Below are positions 1-9,928 of a stretch of 64,000 nucleotides of DNA, piece by piece. Position 1 is the first letter of the stretch, and each line of letters begins with the position of its first letter. The translations under genes and the position numbers were made by a program. Where the stretch lies: positions 1 through 64,000 of the forward strand of contig CAMCRE010000007.1 of the NCBI GenBank assembly GCA_945877255.1, in the 5' to 3' direction. Under the pieces are notes generated by a model that worked only from the letters and a program-made list of their open reading frames with translations, was not told where the DNA came from and made no database searches. The stretch comes from an uncultured Erysipelotrichaceae bacterium (GTDB lineage: Bacteria; Bacillota_I; Bacilli_A; Erysipelotrichales; Erysipelotrichaceae).

Positions 1-21
1 TTCTATTTTAATTTTTTTCAT
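1..21 (-). CDS. Start of a gene running off the left edge (phage region)
   Basis: Only the first seven codons (MKKIKIE) are inside the window. The start is supported by a ribosome site, AGGAG, seven bases before the ATG on the minus strand, and it follows the 70-residue gene at 51-263 by about 30 bases. It probably belongs to the same minus-strand early phage unit. Nothing can be said about function. Confidence 0.5.
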
Positions 22-50
22 GATTGCTCCTAACTGTTAAAAATATATAT

Positions 51-263
51 TTAAGCATCTGATTCCCCATACTCTTGGGACATAATCATTTTTATAGTGT
101 CTTGATATATTTCGTCTATTCGTTTAATAGTATAATCTCGAAGTGTGTTATTAAAATATCCTATTGAATTAGCACGTTGTTCAAGATAAATTTCTAAAAT
201 TAAACTAGGAAACTTAACAAATAAATCATGATTTTGTTTTTCTAGTTTTTTATTTTTCCCCAT
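51..263 (-). CDS. Hypothetical protein, 70 residues (phage early region)
   Basis: I do not recognise this protein. It is a short, charged, probably helical polypeptide with a lysine-rich start (MGKNKKLEK) and no membrane segment or cysteine motif. A strong ribosome site (AAGGAG) precedes the ATG. It lies on the minus strand in line with the other small genes of the element, although the plus-strand gene at 373-618 separates it from them. The setting makes an accessory phage role likely; this is inference from position only. Confidence 0.6.
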   Translation of the reverse strand: MGKNKKLEKQNHDLFVKFPSLILEIYLEQRANSIGYFNNTLRDYTIKRIDEIYQDTIKMIMSQEYGESDA

Positions 264-321
264 AGTTTTCTCCTTGTTTATTCACTTTTCAGCCATTTCT
301 AGCAAAATTTTAAATTTAGTA

Positions 322-350
322 TTCCATGTTGTCGCATATTGTGGTATAAT
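322..350 (+). promoter_or_regulatory. Extended -10 promoter for the 81-residue plus-strand gene
   Basis: TATAAT at 345-350 is preceded by TGG, giving an extended -10. The -35 region (TTCCAT, 322-327) at 17 bases is weak. It sits 23 bases upstream of the gene at 373 and supports that gene against the overlapping minus-strand reading frame. Confidence 0.55.
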
Positions 351-372
351 GGACTAAAAGGAGGTACATATA

Positions 373-618
373 ATGAATGATTTACAGTACAAAATCGAAG
401 TAGACTTCATGGTACAGGGCATTACGCCTGAAAGTGATAATTCGCCAAAATTAGTATGCACTTTCACTGATGCATTCAACCCTTTTTTGAAATACTTCGT
501 ATATGACAGTAATACTGTTGTAGGGCTAATTTTAGGGCTTAATAAAACTGTTGTAGTGAGTAATAAGCCAATTAAATTAACAGACTTCAATACAGTATTG
601 ATTGCTAATGAGGGATAA
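373..618 (+). CDS. Hypothetical protein, 81 residues, plus strand inside the early region
   Basis: The coding call rests on an AAGGAGGT ribosome site with good spacing and an extended -10 promoter just upstream; the minus-strand frame over the same bases has neither. The protein has alternating hydrophobic stretches that look like beta strands (for example LVCTFTDAFNPF and NKTVVVSNKPIKL), no signal peptide and no motif I recognise. Its end overlaps the end of the minus-strand gene at 605-769 by 14 bases, so the two are convergent. It is the only plus-strand gene left of the repressor, so it may be a separately inserted cargo gene. Function unknown. Confidence 0.6.
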   Translation: MNDLQYKIEVDFMVQGITPESDNSPKLVCTFTDAFNPFLKYFVYDSNTVVGLILGLNKTVVVSNKPIKLTDFNTVLIANEG

Positions 619-769
619 ATAATACGGAACCGCACGGCGTTTTTACAAAAGTTATAGTTCCAAAATCTTCATGTTGTTTGAAATATTTACCTTGCCCGAT
701 AACAATCGAGCCAATAGGGATAGTTAATTCATTATTTGAATTGCTGTCCTTTTTCTTATTTTTTTCCAT
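605..769 (-). CDS. Hypothetical protein, 54 residues (phage early region)
   Basis: The start is placed at 769 (MEKNKKKD) because a GGGAGGG ribosome site precedes it; the longer frame from 814 would begin inside the upstream gene with no site. The stop of the 771-1088 gene is one base before this start, so translation is probably coupled. The product begins with a lysine-rich polar stretch, then a small beta-rich segment (IPIGSIVIGQGKYF). I do not recognise a family. Confidence 0.6.
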   Translation of the reverse strand: MEKNKKKDSNSNNELTIPIGSIVIGQGKYFKQHEDFGTITFVKTPCGSVLFIPH

Positions 770-770
770 T

Positions 771-1088
771 TTACCCTCCCACATATTTAATAACCATATT
801 TCTTCTTTTAGCAATTTCTAATTCAGGAATATTATCCGAATTTCCAAACACCCAGACTTCTTGACATTTCCCGAGTAGAATTTTATTGAACAGTTCATTT
901 TTTTTATCTAAAAATATAAACTGTAAATACGGTGTGATTGGTACTCCTCCACCCTCATATACAATTCGAGCATATTCAATGCTTAAATTAAAATCAAAAA
1001 GTCGATTATCACTTTCTTTAAAACACACATATACAAGTGGTTTAAAATTTTCGTGTTTTTTTCTAATAACTGATAGCGGAGATGCCAT
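771..1088 (-). CDS. Phage protein resembling deoxyribosyltransferase-like (DUF4406/DUF7768-type) family
   Basis: The 105-residue protein has the layout of small phage proteins related to nucleoside 2-deoxyribosyltransferases: a first strand (KPLVYVCF), an alpha-helical stretch with A-x-x-V (EYARIVYEGGGVPITPYLQF), and a late CQEVWVFGNS segment followed by an E-x-x-x-A helix. Those are the usual landmarks (P-x-x-P-x-L, C-D-E-L-W-V-F-G), although the catalytic glutamate cannot be assigned with certainty. It lies between a helix-turn-helix gene and a 54-residue gene in one minus-strand unit. The assignment is by remembered pattern. Confidence 0.6.
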   Translation of the reverse strand: MASPLSVIRKKHENFKPLVYVCFKESDNRLFDFNLSIEYARIVYEGGGVPITPYLQFIFLDKKNELFNKILLGKCQEVWVFGNSDNIPELEIAKRRNMVIKYVGG

Positions 1089-1090
1089 AT

Positions 1091-1300
1091 TTATTTTTTA
1101 CCCCCTGATCTATAAAATGTTGAAATATTAAAATGTCTATAAAAGTCATTTCTATTAACTCTACCTCTAAAATTTAAAGAATTAGGGTTATTTTGTTTAA
1201 TCTTCTTAAATTCTTTTGACATTGTACTTCCTGAAAATCCAGTAATTTCGCATGCTTCTTTTCTTGAAATGTAAGCAGCTATTGTTAATCCATTGTTCAT
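1091..1300 (-). CDS. Small helix-turn-helix protein, possibly excisionase- or antirepressor-like
   Basis: The 69-residue protein has a predicted helix-turn-helix near its start (SRKEACEITGFSGSTMSKEF), then a basic tail containing NRNDFYRHF, as in small DNA-binding proteins of the excisionase/MerR-like class. An AAGGAGA ribosome site precedes the ATG. Two bases separate its stop from the start of the next gene. Its leader crosses a 10-bp inverted repeat (1336-1372) that may be a plus-strand RNA, and an operator-like dyad lies at 1412-1424 further upstream. Its role as Xis is plausible but unproven, especially as the integrase is 5 kb away. Confidence 0.6.
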   Translation of the reverse strand: MNNGLTIAAYISRKEACEITGFSGSTMSKEFKKIKQNNPNSLNFRGRVNRNDFYRHFNISTFYRSGGKK

Positions 1301-1302
1301 AA

Positions 1303-1380
1303 TTGTTCTCCTTATTTTTTATGTTATAATTTAGTAAAAGTAATATACACTGGTCGTGGTCGTATTACTTTTTTTATTTT
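1303..1380 (+). ncRNA. Candidate short plus-strand RNA: promoter plus single terminator hairpin
   Basis: A promoter TTGTTC-N16-TATAAT (1303-1330) is followed at once by a perfect 10-bp inverted repeat (AAAAGTAATA at 1336-1345, TATTACTTTT at 1363-1372) and a T-run. The predicted transcript, from about 1336 to 1380, would be one hairpin with a 17-base loop. It is antisense to the leader of the helix-turn-helix gene at 1091-1300. No protein can be encoded. The alternative is a simple bidirectional terminator with a chance promoter. Confidence 0.35.
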
Positions 1381-1411
1381 TATATCGAAACGCTTCAAAA
1401 TCTTATTCGGA

Positions 1412-1424
1412 ACTCTAAAAGAGT
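1412..1424. promoter_or_regulatory. Operator-like dyad ACTCT-N3-AGAGT (third copy)
   Basis: ACTCTAAAAGAGT matches the dyads found in the two divergent promoters next to the repressor gene (2033-2047 and 2113-2129). It lies between the end of the Cro-like gene and the helix-turn-helix gene and could place the latter under the same repressor. Confidence 0.5.
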
Positions 1425-1426
1425 AG

Positions 1427-1624
1427 TTAAGTTTTAAAAAATATAGAAGATTGGTCACAATCATAAACCTCAGCAATCTTCTCTATTTCTTTCACATTCG
1501 GAAACGTTTCCCCTTTTTCCCATCGCAACAATGTTGAGATTGAAATATTTAATTTTTTGGAAGCTTCTTTAAGTGTTAACTCCTTAGCCCCTCGTAATGC
1601 TCTTAGGCTTTTTTTAATCTGCAC
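1427..1624 (-). CDS. Cro-like XRE-family DNA-binding protein
   Basis: The 65-residue protein is a single XRE helix-turn-helix domain: LTLKEASKKLNISISTLLRWEKGETFPN is the helix-turn-helix and the following helix closes the five-helix fold. The start is a GTG at 1624, chosen because GGAGGTG lies seven bases before it. It is read divergently from the CI-type repressor at 2155 and sits downstream of the operator-controlled promoter at 2026-2054, the usual place of Cro. Expected role: binding the same operators during lytic growth, from position and size. Confidence 0.8.
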   Translation of the reverse strand: MQIKKSLRALRGAKELTLKEASKKLNISISTLLRWEKGETFPNVKEIEKIAEVYDCDQSSIFFKT

Positions 1625-1638
1625 TTTCTCACCTCCAT

Positions 1639-1773
1639 TTATTTATTTTTTAATTCTGCTACTTGTTTCTCTAATTCTTCTACTCTTCTAATTGTCTTAA
1701 ACAACAATGTTGGTACTAGAATAATTAAAGTAATAGCTGATACAGTAGATACTACTGATAATACTTCAAACAT
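1639..1773 (-). CDS. Small membrane protein, 44 residues
   Basis: It has a good GGAGA ribosome site and one hydrophobic segment (about residues 2-25, ending LIILVPTLLF) followed by a charged amphipathic helix (RRVEELEKQVAELKNK). The layout, a start MFEVL, one membrane helix and a charged tail, resembles the short holin-like or type I toxin peptides of Gram-positive phages, but the match is weak. It is read between the 41-residue peptide gene and the Cro-like gene. Confidence 0.6.
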   Translation of the reverse strand: MFEVLSVVSTVSAITLIILVPTLLFKTIRRVEELEKQVAELKNK

Positions 1774-1798
1774 AGTGTGTTCTCCTTTCTTTTTCTAT

Positions 1799-1909
1799 TT
1801 GTAATTTAGTCAAATGTGTGCTATAATGTTCAAGAACACCCCCACCACTCTAGCACAAGTAAGTGGGGGATGAAAACTATTTTTTAGTTTTCTTTGTTCT
1901 TGTTTTTTT
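1799..1909 (+). ncRNA. Candidate antisense small RNA to the 41-residue peptide mRNA
   Basis: A promoter TTGTAA-N17-TATAAT (1799-1827) predicts a start near 1834. The transcript would contain a GC-rich hairpin (CCCCCAC at 1839-1845 with GTGGGGG at 1863-1869) and end in a second hairpin (AAAACTA 1873-1879, TAGTTTT 1885-1891) followed by a T-rich tract to 1909. That makes about 75 nt. Its last 30 bases are complementary to the end of the peptide gene at 1877-2002, the convergent layout of type I toxin-antitoxin RNAs. Confidence 0.45.
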
Positions 1910-2002
1910 GGAGATTGACCTCACAGCTACGATTGCCGTTGCAACCGCCGAAGTTGTAAGAGCAATCTCTTTTATTATCTCTAACACTTTTTTAAAGCAC
2001 AT
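1877..2002 (-). CDS. Small basic peptide, 41 residues; candidate type I toxin
   Basis: The ATG at 2002 has AAGGAGG eight bases upstream. The peptide has a moderately hydrophobic middle (about residues 7-29, EIIKEIALTTSAVATAIVAV) and a lysine/arginine tail (SKKTRTKKTKK), a shape shared by small membrane-active peptides. A GC-rich hairpin follows the stop, and a plus-strand promoter produces an RNA complementary to its 3' end. It is the first gene after the repressor-controlled promoter, so it would be silent in the lysogen. No Fst-type P-x-x-x-G motif is present, so family membership is unproven. Confidence 0.5.
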   Translation of the reverse strand: MCFKKVLEIIKEIALTTSAVATAIVAVRSISKKTRTKKTKK

Positions 2003-2025
2003 CACTTTTTCCTCCTTACACCATT

Positions 2026-2054
2026 ATTATACTACTCTTTAAGAGTAAAATCAA
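2026..2054 (-). promoter_or_regulatory. Lytic-direction promoter with dyad operator in its spacer
   Basis: On the minus strand the promoter reads TTGATT-N17-TATAAT (-35 at 2049-2054, -10 at 2026-2031). The perfect 15-base dyad TACTCTTTAAGAGTA (2033-2047) lies wholly in the spacer, so bound repressor would block RNA polymerase. It drives the 41-residue peptide, the small membrane protein and the Cro-like gene. Confidence 0.75.
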
Positions 2055-2103
2055 GCGTTATTATCTTTTTTGAATAAATTTTTTCCAAAAATGACGTTAT
2101 TAT

Positions 2104-2132
2104 TTGTTTTTAGTACTTTTTTAGAGTACAAT
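2104..2132 (+). promoter_or_regulatory. Repressor promoter with overlapping dyad operator
   Basis: The plus-strand promoter TTGTTT-N17-TACAAT ends 22 bases before the repressor start. The dyad GTACTTTTTTAGAGTAC (2113-2129) covers its spacer and is a one-mismatch version of the operator at 2033-2047, suggesting autoregulation. The two operators are 65 bases apart. Confidence 0.7.
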
Positions 2133-2154
2133 TGAAGTATAAAGGAGGCTTATT

Positions 2155-2853
2155 ATGCACGCAAAATCAAGAGAAAAATTTACCAAAATGCTAAATTGGT
2201 TAATTAAAGATGAAGGAATTACTCCGACCGAACTAGCAAGACGAATTAATTATCCTGCTACAACTGTTTATAATTGGTGTCAAGGCGTTCGTTTTCCGAA
2301 GGCTGAATCTTTGGAGGATATAGCAAATTATTTCAATGTACTGCCGTCTGATTTAATTTCAGACGAAATAAAATCGACTACCCTCACCCCCCTAAACGTT
2401 GAAATAAAATATGATGACTATTTCCCTATGCACTTTAAAACAGGATTATCTGCTGGTATTTTTAGCGAACCTCCTGAATATCAAGATTTGGAAGAAAACA
2501 TTGTATACGTTCCTATAAAATTTTTACCACGAAAAAAACGACTTGCAGCCTTTAAAGTAAACGGCGAGTCTATGAATAATGTTATACCTCATGGATCTAT
2601 TGCAATAATCGAAGATACTTATAATAATGCCATTCCGATTAAAAACGGTGATATTATTGCTGTTGCTTGGGGTAACGATATGACACTAAAACGTTTTTAT
2701 GATGACGGAGATAAAATTGTCCTGTCTCCTGATAGTACACTTAAATCATTCACACCTATAATTTTAGATAAATCGGAATATATAACTATTATCGGTAAGT
2801 TAGTTTGGTGGTCTAATCCTGATGATGTGGTGGAGCAGTATTACGAAAGGTAG
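2155..2853 (+). CDS. CI-type phage repressor with self-cleavage (S24/LexA-like) domain
   Basis: The 232-residue protein has an N-terminal XRE helix-turn-helix (about residues 23-50, TPTELARRINYPATTVYNW) and a C-terminal LexA/CI peptidase fold. The predicted cleavage bond is Ala100-Gly101 (GLSAGIF), the nucleophile Ser139 (VNGESMN) and the general base Lys179 (TLKRFY). A repressor of this kind keeps the lytic promoter shut and is destroyed after RecA activation by DNA damage. AAGGAGG precedes the ATG. It stands between divergent promoters that both contain dyad operators, and it is the first rightward gene of the lysogeny side. Confidence 0.93.
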   Translation: MHAKSREKFTKMLNWLIKDEGITPTELARRINYPATTVYNWCQGVRFPKAESLEDIANYFNVLPSDLISDEIKSTTLTPLNVEIKYDDYFPMHFKTGLSAGIFSEPPEYQDLEENIVYVPIKFLPRKKRLAAFKVNGESMNNVIPHGSIAIIEDTYNNAIPIKNGDIIAVAWGNDMTLKRFYDDGDKIVLSPDSTLKSFTPIILDKSEYITIIGKLVWWSNPDDVVEQYYER

Positions 2854-2910
2854 AAAGGAATAATATATAATAAACATGTACCAAATAGCTTGTTTTCAAA
2901 AAAAGGTGTT

Positions 2911-2946
2911 TTTTCTATAAGTGCGATATTATAACATGTGAATTAC
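2911..2946. repeat. Direct repeat, copy A (upstream of the AbiF RNA)
   Basis: This copy starts TTTTCTATAAGTGCGATATT and continues to ACATGTGAATTAC. About 34 bases are shared with copy B at 4269-4303 and about 20 with copy C at 4449-4473. It ends 28 bases before the TTGACA of the AbiF RNA promoter. Confidence 0.8.
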
Positions 2947-2974
2947 AAAATGGTCGGGTTGAAATATATATTCA

Positions 2975-3003
2975 TTGACAGTATATGTCAATTTTGGTAT
3001 AAT
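2975..3003 (+). promoter_or_regulatory. Consensus promoter for the AbiF leader RNA, with inverted repeat over the -35
   Basis: TTGACA at 2975-2980 and TATAAT at 2998-3003 are separated by exactly 17 bases, a perfect consensus. ATTGACA (2974-2980) and TGTCAAT (2986-2992) form a 7-bp inverted repeat over the -35, a possible operator. Confidence 0.85.
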
Positions 3004-3009
3004 TTAAAC

Positions 3010-3052
3010 ATAGGATTAGGTCAGTAAGCATATGGTGCGCTGGCCATTTTTT
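3010..3052 (+). ncRNA. Short leader/antitoxin-type RNA upstream of AbiF, ending in a terminator
   Basis: The predicted transcript starts near 3010, seven bases after the -10. GGTCAG (3019-3024) pairs with CTGGCC (3040-3045), with an inner GCA/TGC pairing, and is followed by six T's, so most transcripts should stop before the gene at 3064. Promoter, short RNA, leaky terminator, then a HEPN protein is the order seen in RNA-controlled toxin systems. A conserved abiF RNA motif has been described upstream of such genes; whether this is a member was not tested. Confidence 0.6.
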
Positions 3053-3063
3053 ATGAGGTAAAA

Positions 3064-4017
3064 ATGAAGGAACATAAAACATTTAATCAACAATTGACAA
3101 TTCTAAGGTCTAGAGGAATGACTGTTCCAACAAATGGACACCCTAAAAGATTTTTAGAGCAAGAAAATTATTATAATGTAATCAATGGATATAAAGATTT
3201 GTTTTTAGCGAGAAATGCAGATAATACTATCATTACACCTGAACAATATATGATAGGAACGCATTTTGATGAGTTAAAATCATTATTTTTGTTTGATAGA
3301 GACTTGAGAATTTTATTTTTAGAGTATATTTTAATTTTTGAAAATTCATTTAAGACAACTTTAGCATACGAATTTTCTAAGAAATATAAAAAAATAAATT
3401 CCTACTTAGATATAAATAATTATATCTCTAATGATCCCAAGAATGTGTTAAATCAAATATCAATTTTGACAAAAACGATACATGAAAAAGTAGATAAACG
3501 CGGAGCTGTAAAACATTATATCGAAGAACATGGACATGTCCCCCTATGGGTACTAGTCAACTATTTAACTATTGGGAATCTTTCTCATCTGTATGGTGTG
3601 TTAAAGGATTCAGATAAAAATACTATTGCTAAATTTTATGCAGATAAGTTTTTTAAACAAAATAATTGTGCGAGTAATGACTTTAAACTTTCCAGTAAAG
3701 AGTTCAGTTCAGGATTGAAAGTTATTAATTTAGTTAGAAATATTTGTGCTCACGATGAAAGACTATATAATCATAATTATGGTTCTGTATCAATTTCTAA
3801 TATAGCTCGATTTTTAAATTTTCCAATACAAGATAACCGTAGGTTGATCGTAGCTATTCTTTTTTTGAAGATAGTGTTAGATAAAAAATATTTTATACAA
3901 TTCAAGAAAAAATTGTTAAAATTATTTTCAAAATATAATGGAAACTTTAGTACCGTCAAGTTTGAAGATATTGTTTTCATGATGGGAATTAAGATTAATG
4001 ATATTAATGATTTGTGA
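3064..4017 (+). CDS. AbiF/AbiD-like (Abi_2) abortive-infection HEPN protein
   Basis: The 317-residue protein matches the Abi_2 family: an early FNQQLTILRSRGM segment, then RFLEQENYYNVINGYKDLF, and a HEPN-type R-x4-H motif, R225-N-I-C-A-H230, followed by DERLYN. HEPN motifs of this kind are the active sites of ribonucleases, so the expected action is cleavage of RNA to stop phage growth. GAGGT precedes the ATG. The gene lies between a consensus promoter with its own short terminated RNA and a strong terminator (4034-4064), so it is a self-contained cargo cassette. The second HEPN residue pair, if any, could not be assigned. Confidence 0.88.
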   Translation: MKEHKTFNQQLTILRSRGMTVPTNGHPKRFLEQENYYNVINGYKDLFLARNADNTIITPEQYMIGTHFDELKSLFLFDRDLRILFLEYILIFENSFKTTLAYEFSKKYKKINSYLDINNYISNDPKNVLNQISILTKTIHEKVDKRGAVKHYIEEHGHVPLWVLVNYLTIGNLSHLYGVLKDSDKNTIAKFYADKFFKQNNCASNDFKLSSKEFSSGLKVINLVRNICAHDERLYNHNYGSVSISNIARFLNFPIQDNRRLIVAILFLKIVLDKKYFIQFKKKLLKLFSKYNGNFSTVKFEDIVFMMGIKINDINDL

Positions 4018-4033
4018 AAGTATAATATTAACG

Positions 4034-4064
4034 AAGACATCGTTTCATTAACGGTGTCTTTTTT
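4034..4064 (+). terminator. Terminator after the AbiF-like gene
   Basis: AAGACAT-CGTT pairs with AACG-G-TGTCTT around a six-base loop, followed by a run of six T's. It starts 17 bases after the stop. Confidence 0.85.
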
Positions 4065-4092
4065 ATACCCATTTTTAAGAAAGGAGGTTATT

Positions 4093-4245
4093 ATGGCAAA
4101 TCGAATTAAGGGAATTACAATCGAAATTGGTGGAGATACAACGGGTCTTGATAAGCCTCATTCGACCATTAGAAATACACAGCCGACCCTTGTTAATGTT
4201 ACAACAAAAGTACTCAAGTGGGTATTTTTATTTTCCCTTTTTTGA
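4093..4245 (+). pseudogene. Remnant of a phage tail tape-measure gene (first ~50 codons)
   Basis: A strong ribosome site (AAAGGAGGT) leads into MANRIKGITIEIGGDTTGLD, which I recognise as the start of tail tape-measure proteins of Firmicutes siphophages. The next residues (TIRNTQPTLVNVTTKVLK) still fit the usual K-x-I-x-x-T-Q-x-x-L-x-x-V-x-x-L-L-K pattern with a few residues lost, then the frame stops at TGA. Tape-measure proteins are normally several hundred to over a thousand residues, so this is a fragment left by deletion of the late genes, with the AbiF cassette and direct repeats on either side. Confidence 0.7.
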
Positions 4246-4262
4246 CTACTTTTATTGTGACA

Positions 4263-4303
4263 TTGACATTTTTCTATAAGTGCGATATTATCACATGTGA
4301 ATT
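4263..4303. repeat. Direct repeat, copy B, with possible promoter
   Basis: The bases 4269-4303 repeat copy A almost exactly. TTGACA (4263-4268) is 17 bases before TATTAT (4286-4291), so this copy could itself be a promoter. It contains the palindrome TCACATGTGA. Confidence 0.75.
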
Positions 4304-4333
4304 GGCATCATATGATGAAATGATGTAATTTTA

Positions 4334-4362
4334 TTGACAATTAGGAATATATTATGTAGAAT
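4334..4362 (+). promoter_or_regulatory. Promoter of the second RNA unit
   Basis: TTGACA at 4334-4339 and TAGAAT at 4357-4362 are 17 bases apart. The -35 starts 31 bases after repeat B, close to the 29-base offset between repeat A and the AbiF RNA promoter. Confidence 0.8.
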
Positions 4363-4368
4363 ATAGTT

Positions 4369-4445
4369 ACGTTAGCTGCCGAGAAATTCTACGTGAACCG
4401 GATGTGCGTAAAGAGGGTATGTGATTTAAACACATAGCCTTTTTT
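4369..4445 (+). ncRNA. Second structured RNA with terminator, upstream of Fic
   Basis: The predicted transcript of about 77 nt has a stem TCTACG (4388-4393) with CGTA-A-AGA (4407-4414), and a terminator hairpin (GG-TATGTG at 4415-4423 with CACATA-GCC at 4431-4439) followed by six T's. A CCG near 4379-4381 could pair with the CGG in the first loop. It has no reading frame and lies in the same repeat-promoter-RNA-terminator order as the AbiF RNA, but is followed by a Fic gene that has its own promoter. It may be an orphan antitoxin-type RNA; this is inference. Confidence 0.55.
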
Positions 4446-4448
4446 CAT

Positions 4449-4473
4449 TACTATATTATCACATGTGAATTAC
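4449..4473. repeat. Direct repeat, copy C
   Basis: The core TATTATCACATGTGAATTAC is shared with copies A and B; the upstream CTATAAGTGCG half is missing. It starts three bases after the T-run of the second RNA unit and lies about 100 bases before the Fic gene. Confidence 0.75.
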
Positions 4474-4506
4474 ATTTGATAATAAAACCTTAACAATATA
4501 ATTTAC

Positions 4507-4530
4507 AATTTACAAAAATAAGTGATATAA
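4507..4530 (+). promoter_or_regulatory. Likely promoter of the Fic gene
   Basis: A TATAAT at about 4526-4531 is preceded by TTTACA-like -35 sequence about 18 bases upstream. It shows that Fic need not be transcribed from the RNA unit upstream. Confidence 0.5.
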
Positions 4531-4571
4531 TATTAAAAACTTTTTTTGAATAAGTGAAAGGGGGATAGAAT

Positions 4572-5795
4572 ATGACAGATTATAAGAAGCTACGAACTTT
4601 ATTTTATATCGATGAACAAAGTTATGTAGAAGAATATCAAAAACGAATTACCTCACATTCTACATATTTAACAGATTTTGAAATAAATGCGTTTAATAGT
4701 GAAAAAAAATATAATTTATTTTTCTTAATTAATAGACAACTTATTTCATTAATAGAGAAAGTAAATTTAAATAGTAAGATAATTAGAAATCTACAACAAA
4801 AAATCCCCAAAGTAGCTCATGAGCAGTTGTTTATTAGTTTATTGGTTAATGAATTACAGAGTACAAATGAAATTGAAAATGTAAGGAGTACTAAAAAAGA
4901 ACTTCATAAGATTGCTGAAATGGTTCAGAATAATGATAAAAAAATGATAAACTCAAAAAGATTTATAGGTTTAGTATCACAGTATTTATCAGATTATTTT
5001 GAGATTACTAAAGTAGAAGATTTTAGAAAATTATATGATGAGGTTGTTGAAAATGAGATCGATGTTAAAGATAAATTAGATGGGATCTTATTCAGAAAAG
5101 AGCCAGTTTCTGTAGTATCTTCAACTAAAGTAACACATAAAGGAATAATACCTGAAGAAAAGATTATAAAAAAATTAGAAGAATTATTGCAGTTTAGAAA
5201 ATCGGATAAATATCCTCCGTTGGCACAAATTATGTTACAACATTACATGTTTGAATATATTCATCCTTATTATGATGGAAATGGAAGAATAGGAAGATTT
5301 ATGATTTATCAGGATTTAAAAAAAGTGCTAGATGATTTTTCTGCAATTACATTTTCATATTCGATAAATAGAAATAAGAATAAATATTATTCTGCATTTG
5401 AAGAAACATCAAATGTATTAAATAATGGTGAAGCTACAGAGTTTATTTCTGAAATGCTTTCTATATTAAATTATGGTCAAGAATTGATGATTGAAAAATT
5501 AAGAAAAAGTGTATATGATTTTGACAAAGCATTAAAACATTTATTTGATTTAAATTTCACGGATGAAGTTAAAGATCTAATGTATATCTTAATTCAAAGT
5601 AAATTATTTTCTACTGATTTTAATAGAATAAATTACAAAGGTTTAAGAGATATGATAAAAAAAGGAAAAACTAAACTCAAAAAAAACTTATTAAATTTAG
5701 AACAACTAGGTGTTGTGGAGAAAATTTCATCAAGACCATTAACATATCAAATAACTGATGAGTATATGGAGAGAGAAATATTAAAAAATGTATAA
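4572..5795 (+). CDS. Fic-domain protein with N-terminal inhibitory helix
   Basis: The 407-residue protein has the Fic active-site motif HPYYDGNGRIGR at 231-242 (catalytic His231), typical of enzymes that transfer AMP from ATP to protein hydroxyls. Upstream, residues 98-103 (TNEIEN) fit the inhibitory motif (S/T)xxxE(G/N), so it is a class II enzyme held off by its own N-terminal helix. The C-terminal 80 residues look like a winged helix (KGLRDMIKKGKTKLKKNLLNL). GGGGG precedes the start. It sits among phage-element cargo, so a role in host takeover or defence is plausible; the target is unknown. Confidence 0.92.
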   Translation: MTDYKKLRTLFYIDEQSYVEEYQKRITSHSTYLTDFEINAFNSEKKYNLFFLINRQLISLIEKVNLNSKIIRNLQQKIPKVAHEQLFISLLVNELQSTNEIENVRSTKKELHKIAEMVQNNDKKMINSKRFIGLVSQYLSDYFEITKVEDFRKLYDEVVENEIDVKDKLDGILFRKEPVSVVSSTKVTHKGIIPEEKIIKKLEELLQFRKSDKYPPLAQIMLQHYMFEYIHPYYDGNGRIGRFMIYQDLKKVLDDFSAITFSYSINRNKNKYYSAFEETSNVLNNGEATEFISEMLSILNYGQELMIEKLRKSVYDFDKALKHLFDLNFTDEVKDLMYILIQSKLFSTDFNRINYKGLRDMIKKGKTKLKKNLLNLEQLGVVEKISSRPLTYQITDEYMEREILKNV

Positions 5796-5856
5796 ATAAG
5801 ATTTTTATACCGACATGGAACATATCGTTTGGCAAATTTAAGTTTTTTGTGTATAG

Positions 5857-6045
5857 TATAATTACATCAAGATATGCTCTTAAGAGCTACTATGAAAGAA
5901 ATTCATAAAAGGAGAGTTTTAGCTCTCCTTTTATGCTGTAAATCCCTGTAGTCGATGTTTCGTACAGTGAACGCTATACTTTTAAACTTACCACAGGCAA
6001 TAAGCGGTGGGGCATTGTTAATACAGTGCCTTTAATTTTTAAATA
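5857..6045 (+). ncRNA. Candidate structured RNA downstream of Fic
   Basis: A TATAAT at 5857-5862 lacks a clear -35. Downstream are GCTCTTAAGAGC, a perfect 13-bp hairpin (5904-5916 with 5923-5935, six-base loop), a CTGTA/TACAG stem (5946-5967), and a terminator-like hairpin GGCATTGT-TAAT-ACAGTGCC (6011-6030) followed by a T-rich tract. The first hairpin could instead be the Fic terminator. The density of hairpins suggests one RNA of about 175 nt, but no known family was recognised. Confidence 0.35.
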
Positions 6046-6110
6046 ATGTCTGTTTATTTTTTATTTTTTCTAAAATATGTATCATATTCTACCTCATTCT
6101 TTTTTTAAAT

Positions 6111-6227
6111 TTCTCGAGATTTCTCGAGAATCACATATAGTAAAAATACATTAAATTTCGCTTTAATACAGCTTATTTTGCAAACAATATTTTATATTTT
6201 ATACTTTAAAATCTCGAGATTTTAAAG
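6111..6227. repeat. CTCGAG palindromes flanking an AT-rich spacer
   Basis: Two tandem 10-base units TTCTCGAGAT and TTCTCGAGAA lie at 6111-6130, each centred on CTCGAG. A perfect 24-base palindrome with the same centre lies at 6204-6227 (arms CTTTAAAATCTC). Such spacing suggests a protein-binding array, possibly for recombination or plasmid-like functions of the element. Confidence 0.6.
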
Positions 6228-6338
6228 CTAATACCTAGGTAACTACTTTTTGCATAATTTTATTATACATAATTTTTTCACGATTGTAAATAATTATTAA
6301 AAAAATGCATGAAATTTTTTGTAGTGCGTAAATAAGAA

Positions 6339-6363
6339 ACCTCTTCTAAAAAATAGAAGAGGT
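6339..6363 (-). terminator. Hairpin downstream of the integrase
   Basis: ACCTCTTCTA pairs perfectly with TAGAAGAGGT around a five-base loop. On the minus strand a T-rich stretch follows, so it most likely ends integrase transcription about 145 bases after the stop. Confidence 0.6.
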
Positions 6364-6508
6364 CTCTAGTTCGGTTTGACCCGAATTAACACATATATAA
6401 TACACTAACTGTTCCAGAAAAACTACTGGTACAATAAAAAACAGCTATATTTTTCAATAGAATTTCATCTCGTAAATGTTCCATATCCCAATGCTTCTAA
6501 ATGAAGAT

Positions 6509-7543
6509 TCACTTTTTTTGTTTTGCTGCATACTCTAACACACTAACTAACGTACTTCCCTTATCTCTAAACAAATGTTTATATGTACGTTCGAGTTCTT
6601 TTACATCATGCCCCATAAATTGTGCAATGCTATCCTTATCACAATATCCTAAAACATCATAACTATACACAATCAAATTAGACGCACACGTGTGCCTAAA
6701 AGCATGACAATGTGTGTTGTAATATTTTTTTACAAACTTTTGAATGTTATTAGGTTGCATAAATGTAATACCCCCGAATAAAAAACCGTCTTTTACATAA
6801 AGCTGTTTTTTAATGATTTCTTTTGCACGAGCAGTAAGTGCAACCTTTCGATAACTAGCTTTTGATTTTAACTTATCCCATCGCCATTGTTTTAATTTTT
6901 TATCATAAATATATTGTCTATCAATCACAATATGATCTTCATGTATTCTATCAAATGTAATAGATAAACATTCATTAATACGCAATCCAGTATCCAGTAA
7001 GAATAGCACAATATCATTTAATGCTACATTGGAATTTCTAAAGATGTGTCCATCTTCAATTAAACTTGTTTCATTAAATAGCTCAATTTCTTTTTTAGGC
7101 GTTCTCTTTTTAGGAATAATAAAGTCTGCTAACTTCTCTTGGATGTATCGATATTTGTATCCGAAATTTAAAGCAGCTTTTAATACACGCACATTACTTG
7201 TGGATAAATGAATACACATTCTATTCACTTTATTCACATTCAGTTCATTTAAATATATATTATTTTTTTCTAGTGCGTTCTTTAGGCTATTGAAATGTGC
7301 TAATGCTGATTGTGAATAATTTCTTGAAGAAATAAGTGCATCGATTAGATCAAACAACTTCATGCCATGTACTTCTAAAATTTTACTTTCTAATTCTTTT
7401 TTATATTCTTTATCAAAAGCTAACGCTTGTTTTTTACTCGTGAAATCAGTTTGTTTGTAGTAGCTTTCATATTGCCCGTGAGAATTTTTGTATTTACCAT
7501 AAACATAAAATCTTTTTGTTTTTTCATTAATTTTAATCGCCAT
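6509..7543 (-). CDS. int: Tyrosine-recombinase integrase of the element
   Basis: The 344-residue protein has an N-terminal arm-binding segment (residues 1-50, KNSHGQYESYYKQTDF), a SAM-like core-binding domain and a C-terminal catalytic domain. The catalytic set is visible: Arg188 (DTGLRINE), Lys225, His280-x-x-Arg283 (HAFRH), His312 (MGHD) and the nucleophile Tyr321 (TYKHLF). It inserts and excises the element by site-specific recombination. It marks the right end of the element: the tandem TTTTTACAAG repeats and the terminator of the pyruvate formate-lyase genes follow within 120 bases. An AGAGAGGT ribosome site precedes the start. Confidence 0.95.
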   Translation of the reverse strand: MAIKINEKTKRFYVYGKYKNSHGQYESYYKQTDFTSKKQALAFDKEYKKELESKILEVHGMKLFDLIDALISSRNYSQSALAHFNSLKNALEKNNIYLNELNVNKVNRMCIHLSTSNVRVLKAALNFGYKYRYIQEKLADFIIPKKRTPKKEIELFNETSLIEDGHIFRNSNVALNDIVLFLLDTGLRINECLSITFDRIHEDHIVIDRQYIYDKKLKQWRWDKLKSKASYRKVALTARAKEIIKKQLYVKDGFLFGGITFMQPNNIQKFVKKYYNTHCHAFRHTCASNLIVYSYDVLGYCDKDSIAQFMGHDVKELERTYKHLFRDKGSTLVSVLEYAAKQKK

Positions 7544-7597
7544 AGAAACCTCTCTTTCATGACTATTATAAATTACTTTTTAGAAAAAAACAAATAA

Positions 7598-7618
7598 TTT
7601 TTACAAGTTTTTTACAAG
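7598..7618. repeat. Tandem repeat near the presumed attachment end
   Basis: TTTTTACAAG is present twice in tandem (7598-7607 and 7608-7618), 55 bases upstream of the integrase start. They could be integrase arm-binding sites or part of the attachment site; the other end of the element is outside the window, so the core cannot be defined. Confidence 0.4.
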
Positions 7619-7635
7619 TTTTCGGTTTTGGCAAT

Positions 7636-7665
7636 AAAAAAAGTGGCTATTTAAGCCACTTTTTA
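7636..7665 (-). terminator. Terminator of the pyruvate formate-lyase genes
   Basis: AGTGGCT and AGCCACT, extended by A/T pairs, form a hairpin with T-runs on both strands. It lies just after the stop of the glycyl-radical domain gene and may mark the chromosome side of the junction. Confidence 0.85.
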
Positions 7666-7670
7666 TTAAA

Positions 7671-7910
7671 TTACATACTTTCGTGCATTGTACGTGCGAT
7701 AACGTCGTCTTGTTGCTCTTTTGTTAATTTATTGAAGTTTACTGCATACCCAGAAACACGAATAGTTAATTGTGGGTATTTTTCTGGATGTTTTTGTGCA
7801 TCTAATAAAGTATCACGATCAAAAACGTTTACGTTTAAGTGGTGCCCTCCATTTTCAGCGTATCCATCAATTAAAGATACTAAGTTATCAATTTTGTTTG
7901 TGTTTGACAT
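7671..7910 (-). CDS. Separate glycyl-radical domain of pyruvate formate-lyase, 79 residues
   Basis: This is the C-terminal end of pyruvate formate-lyase as its own gene: [17 protein letters not shown], then [15 protein letters not shown] with the radical-bearing Gly54, ending in IARTMHESM. In ordinary enzymes these residues close the 745-760 residue chain. The start has its own ribosome site (AAAGGGAAAG) 20 bases after the stop of the large gene, and the two are in different frames. It differs from GrcA (about 127 residues), the spare part that repairs an intact enzyme, because here the large protein lacks the domain, so this peptide must supply it. An activating enzyme is needed to form the radical; none is in the window. 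Confidence 0.95.
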
Positions 7911-7930
7911 ATTCTTTCCCTTTCTATATT

Positions 7931-9928
7931 TTAATCTTTCCCTAATGATTTTGGCACAATCGAGAATGTGTTTGAAATTCCATCTTTTGAATGTTCGTAT
8001 GGTAGTTTAGCAACAGATTCTAACGAAGCTAATGCACCATTTTTATCACGTCCATGCATTGGGTTAGCACCTGGTGCAAACGGTTCACCGGCTTTACGTC
8101 CATCTGGTGTATTACCTGTTTTTTTACCGTACACTACATTTGAAGTAATCGTTAAGATACTCATTGAAGGTACACCATTACGGTATGTTTGGTGTTTTCT
8201 AATTTTGTTCATGAAGTTTTTCACTAATTCAGCAGCAATTTCATCTACCCTATCATCATTGTTACCAAATTGTGGGAATTCTCCTTCAGTTGCGTAATCA
8301 ACTGCAACACCATCTTCATCACGAATAACTTTAACTTTTGCATATTTAATAGCACTTAATGAATCAGCTACTACAGATAATCCTGCTATTCCAGTCGCAA
8401 ATAGACGACGAACATCTCTATCATGTAACGCCATTTCACTTCTTTCATACGCATATTTGTCGTGCATATAGTGAATAATGTTTAATGTATTCACATATAA
8501 CTCCGCCAACCATTCTAATACTTGATCATATTTCACAATTACTTCATCATATGATAAGTACTCACTTCTAATTGGCTCAAATCTTGGTGCAACTTGAGCT
8601 TTACTCTTCTCGTCTTGTCCACCATTAATCGCATATAATAACGCTTTTGCAAGGTTTGCACGTGCTCCGAAGAATTGCATGTCTTTACCAACTCTCATAG
8701 ATGATACACAACATGCAATCGCATAGTCATCACCCATGTCTGTTCGCATTAAATCATCATTTTCATATTGAATTGATGAAGTTTGAATTGACATTTTAGC
8801 ACAGAAACGTTTAAATCCGATTGGTAATTTTGTTGACCATAAAACAGTTAAGTTCGGTTCTGGTGCAGGACCTAAAGTTGTCAAGGTGTGAAGTACACGG
8901 AATGAATTTTTTGTTACTAGTGTTCTTCCATCAACACCCATACCACCAATAGATTCTGTAACCCATGTTGGATCCCCAGAGAATAAATCATTATATTCCG
9001 GTGTTCTCATGAATTTAACTAAACGCAATTTCATTACAAAGTGATCCATCATTTCTTGTGCTTCACTTTCTGTAATGATTCCTTCTCGCAAGTCTCTTTC
9101 AATGAAAATATCTAAGAACGTTGTAACACGCCCTAAAGACATCGCCGCTCCATTTTGTTCTTTTATCGCAGCTAAATATCCAAAGTAAGTCCACTGAATA
9201 GCTTCTTTTGCTGTTTTAGCTGGTTCCGAAATATCAAAACCATATTCAGAAGCCATTACTTTTATTTCATTTAATGCTTTAATTTGCTCAGAAATTTCTT
9301 CGCGATCACGAATTTTATCAGAAGTCATTGCTCCTTCCAATAATTTTAATCCAGCCTTTTTGTCTTTAATTAAGAAGTCGATACCATATAATGCTACACG
9401 TCTGTAATCACCAATAATACGCCCTCTTCCATACGCATCTGGAAGTCCTGTTATAATTCCTGATCTTCTCGCTGCTTTCATTTCATCAGTATACGCATCA
9501 AACACTCCTTCATTATGTGTTTTACGATACTTCGTGAAAATTTCTACTACTTCTGGATCGATTTCAAATCCATATGATTTTAATGCTGTTTCTGACATTC
9601 TAATACCACCAAACGGTTGTAGTGAACGTTTAAATGGTTTATCTGTTTGGAATCCTACGATTGTTTCTAATTCTTTATTCAAATAACCAGCACCATGTGA
9701 TGTAATTGTTGATACTACTTTCGTATCAGCATCTAGTACACCACCGTTTGCTTTTTCTGCCTTATTTAACTCCATCACTTGTGCCCAAAGCGTTTTTGTT
9801 GCTTCAGTAGCATCAGCTAGGAATGTGTCATCACCTTCATAAGGCGTGTAGTTTTTTTGGATAAAGTCACGTACGTCAACATCTTTTGTCCATTTTCCTT
9901 CTACAAAATCTTTCCATCCTTGATACAT
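7931..9928 (-). CDS. pflB: Pyruvate formate-lyase body lacking the glycyl-radical domain
   Basis: The 665-residue protein converts pyruvate and CoA to acetyl-CoA and formate in anaerobic fermentation, in the cytoplasm. It has the usual start ([10 protein letters not shown]), the active-site pair Cys406-Cys407 (IACCVSSMR) and [11 protein letters not shown], but ends at [16 protein letters not shown], exactly where the glycyl-radical domain would begin. That domain is the next gene, 20 bases on. The start at 9928 is chosen over an upstream ATG because AGAGGT lies in front of it and MYQGW matches the family start. A promoter TTGCTT-N17-TAAAAT lies at 10004-10032. Confidence 0.96.

What the first reader, a model, noticed from the sequence alone, without database searches (positions are those of the whole stretch)
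1799..2002. Candidate type I toxin-antitoxin pair at the head of the early phage operon
Seen: a 41-residue peptide with hydrophobic middle and basic tail, strong ribosome site, and a convergent plus-strand promoter giving a 75-nt RNA with a GC-rich hairpin and terminator that is antisense to the peptide's 3' end. The peptide's promoter carries the repressor's operator in its spacer. Inference: a small toxin held off by antisense RNA and additionally by the CI repressor.
Basis: partly seen in the sequence, partly recalled or inferred. Interest (0 to 1): 0.58.

Follow-up and report, generated by a model that had tools for sequence, protein, structure and literature searches.

The report
Repressor-controlled phage toxin with antisense guard
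A bacterial virus lying dormant in its host carries, as the first gene of its awakening programme, a tiny membrane peptide gene that looks like a toxin kept silent both by the virus's own repressor and by a small matching antisense RNA, an arrangement much like one already known in a Bacillus phage.

Summary
Window 1877-2002(-) encodes a 41-residue peptide with hydrophobic middle and basic tail; a convergent extended -10 promoter (1799-1827 +) scores above all 1000 shuffles and all 326 control gene ends; the predicted ~75-nt RNA folds at z -3.9 to -5.4 and ends in a U-run. By synteny and peptide searches I found seven more loci of this layout (two in this same genome); all eight have the stop-spanning hairpin and a convergent promoter, features not used to find them. 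Two related prophages hold the pair in the same slot between CI and Cro, with different palindromic operators. The layout matches B. subtilis SPbeta yonT/SR6/yoyJ, a proven type I toxin-antitoxin locus whose promoter is bound by the phage repressor (papers); the peptides show no sequence similarity. Best reading: a repressor-gated type I toxin-antitoxin locus of yonT-like architecture, new in sequence and in its place inside the lysis-lysogeny switch. Toxicity, both transcripts and CI binding are untested.

The parts
1877..2002 (-). 41-aa candidate toxin peptide, first gene of the early operon
   Evidence: SD AAGGAGG 2017-2011; no match in Pfam, PHROGs, NCBIfam, PADLOC
2026..2054 (-). promoter of peptide and early operon, TTGATT-17-TATAAT
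   Evidence: consensus match
2034..2046 (.). palindrome ACTCTTTAAGAGT in the promoter spacer, presumed CI/Cro operator
   Evidence: binding not testable
2115..2127 (.). second operator-like site (one mismatch), upstream of CI
1412..1424 (.). third operator-like site, just after the Cro-like gene
1799..1827 (+). convergent antisense promoter TTGTAA-17-TATAAT with TGn extension
1834..1909 (+). predicted antisense RNA (about 75 nt) ending in U7; outer stem 1831-1838/1895-1902, GC hairpin 1839-1869
   Evidence: transcript not tested
1872..1892 (.). hairpin spanning the toxin stop codon, present in both transcripts
1911..1969 (.). inverted repeat inside the peptide ORF (arms 1911-1931, 1949-1969, 76%)
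   Evidence: ORF fold z -1.6 against synonymous permutation, p 0.078
1639..1773 (-). second small hydrophobic peptide, 44 aa, position of yoyJ
1427..1624 (-). Cro-like HTH regulator, next gene of the operon
   Evidence: HTH_3 1.6e-12
2155..2853 (+). CI-type repressor (HTH + S24 peptidase), divergent

Best explanation
A type I toxin-antitoxin locus with the layout of yonT/SR6/yoyJ, placed as the first gene of the phage early operon and gated by the phage repressor. Seen in the sequence: peptide ORF, strong SD on a short leader, inverted repeat in the ORF, stop-spanning hairpin, convergent antisense promoter, U-run, palindrome in the toxin promoter, second small peptide. Inferred: in the lysogen CI sits on the spacer palindrome and shuts the toxin promoter while the antisense RNA is made steadily (no copy of the operator motif lies in its promoter). 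Leaked early mRNA pairs with the antisense RNA at the shared stop-codon hairpin and is cut by RNase III. As the SD is open and the antisense RNA does not reach it, control should be by decay, as for SR6 on yonT. When DNA damage inactivates CI, early mRNA outruns the antisense pool and the membrane peptide is made at the start of lytic growth. The logic is that of SOS-induced tisB/istR-1 with CI in the place of LexA.
For: Eight loci of one layout: stop-spanning hairpin of 6 or more pairs in 8 of 8 against 34 of 326 control gene ends, antisense promoter score of 10 or more in 8 of 8 against 20 of 326. A scan of 259 small ORFs with SD over all sequence then held returned seven distinct hits, all of them these loci; one of 19 in the window (thresholds set after seeing the members). 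Seven of eight ORFs fold more stably than synonymous permutations, as does yonT, z -4.2, whereas ten of eleven neighbouring small genes do not. The same slot between CI and Cro is filled in L032 and L033 with different palindromes. yonT/SR6/yoyJ has the same order of parts, its promoter region is bound by the SPbeta master repressor MrpR, and yonT is induced by mitomycin C.
Against: No toxicity, transcript or binding data. No sequence similarity to YonT. Taken singly, the antisense promoters of L033 and L045 are not significant (85 and 131 of 1000 shuffles), and L060 is borderline (41 of 1000). A run of U after the antisense hairpins was noticed only in the window locus. The L045 ORF is not more structured than permutations (z +0.6) and the window's own ORF only weakly (p 0.078). 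Two of the four CI relatives found, L034 and L035, lack the pair. The window peptide is the least hydrophobic of the set.
Confidence: 0.66

Rival explanations
1. An OOP-like phage regulator: the antisense RNA trims the early operon mRNA for the lysis-lysogeny decision, and the small peptide is a harmless early protein.
For: Size and position recall lambda OOP, a short RNA antisense to the cII 3' end (papers in listing; 77 nt recalled). The antisense RNA lies in the leader of the message that carries Cro.
Against: The layout also occurs away from CI/Cro, by tail/lysis-type genes (L045, L060) and in tandem on contig C18, and it matches a proven toxin pair.
Confidence: 0.17
2. The hairpins are mRNA elements (processing or attenuation between the first gene and the rest) and the plus-strand promoter is not used.
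For: Structures form on both strands; some antisense promoters are weak.
Against: Window promoter beats all shuffles and controls; a convergent promoter recurs in 8 of 8.
Confidence: 0.09
3. Classical addiction module that keeps the prophage by killing cells that lose it.
For: Type I pairs are reported to contribute to maintenance of mobile elements in C. difficile (title and start of abstract in listings).
Against: Addiction needs toxin mRNA in the lysogen; the operator in the toxin promoter should keep it off (inference).
Confidence: 0.06

Closest known systems
yonT/SR6/yoyJ of Bacillus phage SPbeta
   Same: Small hydrophobic-basic peptide first, very strong SD, structured ORF, hairpin at the 3' end, convergent antisense RNA with extended -10 promoter 46-49 nt past the stop, second small hydrophobic peptide, polycistronic, repressor bound at the toxin promoter region.
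   Different: No sequence similarity; the yonT hairpin follows the stop instead of spanning it; SR6 reaches into yoyJ, while the window RNA starts 61 nt short of the second ORF; yonT is not placed between CI and Cro.
tisB/istR-1 and dinQ/agrB of E. coli
   Same: Toxin promoter under a damage-inactivated repressor with a separately made antisense RNA (listing and abstracts).
   Different: Chromosomal, LexA in place of CI; the base-pairing sites differ (recalled).
lambda OOP RNA
   Same: Short phage antisense RNA overlapping the 3' end of an early gene by the immunity region (listing).
   Different: Target is a regulator, CII, not a small membrane peptide.
txpA/RatA, bsrG/SR4, bsrE/SR5 and C. 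difficile prophage type I pairs
   Same: Prophage-borne, convergent overlap, small membrane toxin with charged tail.
   Different: Those toxins were not compared directly here; the window peptide matches no library family.

Membership tests
Type I toxin-antitoxin | Toxin is a small hydrophobic peptide, usually under 60 aa | tested here: met
   41 aa, hydrophobic middle, 11 K/R
Type I toxin-antitoxin | Antisense RNA gene overlapping the toxin gene | tested here: inconclusive
   Promoter, fold and U-run present and beyond chance; transcript not shown
Type I toxin-antitoxin | Peptide toxic when expressed alone | not testable with these tools
   needs expression
Type I toxin-antitoxin | RNA prevents toxin synthesis by pairing | not testable with these tools
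   about 33 nt of overlap with the ORF plus the intergenic stretch, from sequence
YonT family | Sequence similarity to YonT | tested here: not met
   BLASTP no alignment; hhalign probability 1%
YonT family | Order toxin, antisense gene over the 3' end, second small peptide | tested here: met
OOP-like phage antisense RNA | Antisense to the 3' end of a regulator such as cII | tested here: not met
   target is a small hydrophobic peptide without a DNA-binding match
Repressor-gated (tisB-like) toxin control | Repressor site in the toxin promoter | tested here: inconclusive
   palindrome in place and repeated round CI/Cro; binding not testable

The most novel reading that the evidence does not exclude
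The pair is a working part of the lysis-lysogeny switch: the antisense RNA titrates the common early mRNA that carries the toxin, the second peptide and Cro, setting an RNA threshold that CI inactivation must exceed, and the peptide stops cells that cross it only part-way (abortive induction).
Probability: 0.2. Interest if true: 0.68.

Novelty: new variant of a known kind. Interest (0 to 1): 0.46.

Why it matters
What prophages gain from type I toxins is open. Here the candidate toxin sits under the repressor inside the immunity switch, so an addiction model and an induction-linked role make opposite predictions that an RNA blot of induced and uninduced lysogens would separate. The stop-codon hairpin with a convergent promoter is also a signature, independent of peptide sequence, for finding such pairs whose peptides match no family.

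Tried and rejected
No relatives of the peptides in the phage collection by tblastn (the low-complexity filter may hide short basic peptides); plasmid blastn gave only matches at E 3-10; none in viral contigs or by exact DNA in genome contigs. CI relatives in viral contigs and genome contigs: none confirmed. Rfam: no match overlapping the locus in 1-8000. Single-peptide searches of the family gave mostly noise; two loci, L036 and L037, were looked at and lie in long genes of other kinds. Of nine loci examined I kept L045 and L049 (two peptides); of fourteen I kept L060 and L062 (L059 is the L045 place). The rest were dropped because no small peptide ORF of this layout was seen at the hit or because it was another type of small peptide (L039, two copies, and L084; their surroundings were read and they are not in any count of eight). 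Model A4 in 315 genomes of the order: strong matches only in the five genomes it was built from; the other 78 genomes with weak matches (E 0.0025-0.3) were not followed up. In 144 genomes of the class no new clear member. Simple terminator scan of 1-5000: none. No structure prediction was run.

Full report
What is there. On the minus strand, divergent from the CI-type repressor (2155-2853 +), lies the early operon: a 41-residue peptide (1877-2002), a 44-residue hydrophobic peptide (1639-1773), a Cro-like regulator (1427-1624) and further small genes. The contig starts at the window's first base, so the prophage is cut there; the integrase lies at 6509-7543. The peptide's promoter (2054-2026) holds the palindrome ACTCTTTAAGAGT in its spacer; near-copies lie before CI and after Cro and nowhere else in the window at one mismatch or less. 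A plus-strand promoter (1799-1827) with a TGn-extended perfect -10 reads back into the peptide's 3' end, and the resulting RNA folds into an outer stem followed by U7 that encloses two hairpins.

Is it more than chance? The antisense promoter score was reached by 0 of 1000 shuffles and 0 of 326 control gene ends; the RNA is 3.9 to 5.4 s.d. more stable than shuffles. The palindrome count is weaker: 5 of 100 shuffles had three or more matches. Its placement carries the weight.

Relatives. Four libraries do not know the peptide. CI relatives in 244 genomes of the family (no further ones in 315 of the order at 1e-25) led to two prophages of one genome (L032, L033) in which the same slot holds other small peptides. 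Peptide searches gave L045, L060, L062 and two tandem copies on contig C18 of the window's own genome (L049). The eight loci share an SD on a short leader (except L062, where I see no start codon), a hairpin spanning the stop codon, a convergent promoter 16-49 nt past the stop, and a small hydrophobic ORF next (for L060, L033 and L049b the next ORF was read by eye or, not returned by the ORF filter). Hairpins of 6 or more pairs: 8 of 8 against 34 of 326 controls; promoter score of 10 or more: 8 of 8 against 20 of 326. Singly, the L033 and L045 promoters are not significant. Two of the four CI relatives, L034 and L035, have a Cro-like gene directly after CI and no pair. In six annotated phages with related CI the first divergent annotated gene begins about 150-190 bp from CI, which leaves no room for two peptides.

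RNA structure in the coding sequence. Against synonymous permutations the eight ORFs give z of -1.6 (window), -4.0 (L033), -3.4 (L032), +0.6 (L045), -3.7 (L060), -2.2 (L062), -2.5 and -3.5 (L049); yonT gives -4.2, and of eleven neighbouring small genes only the window's own second peptide departs (-3.2). In the predicted folds the SD stays open, so an antisense RNA that covers only the ORF end should act by decay rather than by masking the ribosome site; this is inference.

How it most likely works. Lysogen: CI represses the operon and the antisense RNA is made steadily. Leak: pairing at the stop-codon hairpin and an RNase III cut. Induction: CI, which has an S24 peptidase domain and Ala-Gly, Ser and Lys motifs in the expected order (their meaning is recalled from LexA), is lost, early mRNA exceeds the antisense RNA, and the peptide is made first. 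Every step beyond the anatomy is inferred.

Known counterpart. In SPbeta, yonT is transcribed with yoyJ and downstream genes, and SR6, about 100 nt, overlaps the 3' end of yonT and the 5' end of yoyJ and promotes RNase III decay of yonT mRNA (PMC5848175: abstract and sections 2.1 and 3.1 read). MrpR, the SPbeta master repressor, binds in the yonT promoter region (PMC10516654: passages). [quoted passage not shown] subtilis (PMC3531473: passages). The SPbeta record shows an extended -10 antisense promoter 46 nt past the yonT stop. The peptides are not similar: the same architecture, not shown to be the same family.

What is new. A peptide group without a name in four libraries, and the placing of such a pair inside the CI-Cro interval of three prophages with three different palindromes. 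In searches for type I pairs I saw no description of that placement, but I saw listings and a few papers only, and most subscription journals are not held.

Limits. No expression, toxicity or binding data. The thresholds of the scan were chosen after seeing the members. Homology among the eight peptides is reasonable only for the five in A4; L032 and the C18 pair are grouped by layout.

Noticed in passing
window 2975-4017 (+): AbiD/AbiF-like abortive infection gene (PADLOC AbiD 1.4e-51, Pfam Abi_2) behind a perfect TTGACA-17-TATAAT promoter and a short hairpin leader; 126 bp of promoter, leader and gene start are 77% identical in DNA to Streptococcus phage Javan235, where the gene also sits beside the integrase. 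RNA-regulated AbiF is described in C. difficile (PMC12373285, listing only).
   Followed up: partly
window 4572-5795 (+): Fic-domain gene matching PADLOC SoFic (1.7e-33), second cargo gene between CI and the integrase.
   Followed up: no
window 2910-2944, 4269-4303, 4437-4471: A 35-bp direct repeat (97% and 71% identical to the first copy) flanks the two defence-like cargo genes.
   Followed up: no
L049 61-177 and 464-598 (own genome, contig C18): Two tandem peptide-antisense units with near-identical promoters and different peptides at a contig end.
   Followed up: partly
L045 and L060: Copies of the pair that lie beside phage tail/lysis-type genes instead of CI, each with a palindrome in the peptide promoter.
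   Followed up: no
L039 1541-1666 and 2878-2988; L084 1498-1587: A different small-peptide type with GC-rich hairpins before and after the ORF, twice in tandem in L039; looks like another antisense-controlled toxin family.
   Followed up: no
window 774-1088 (-): Early gene matching DUF7768 just above the Pfam cut-off (27.2 against 26 bits).
   Followed up: no
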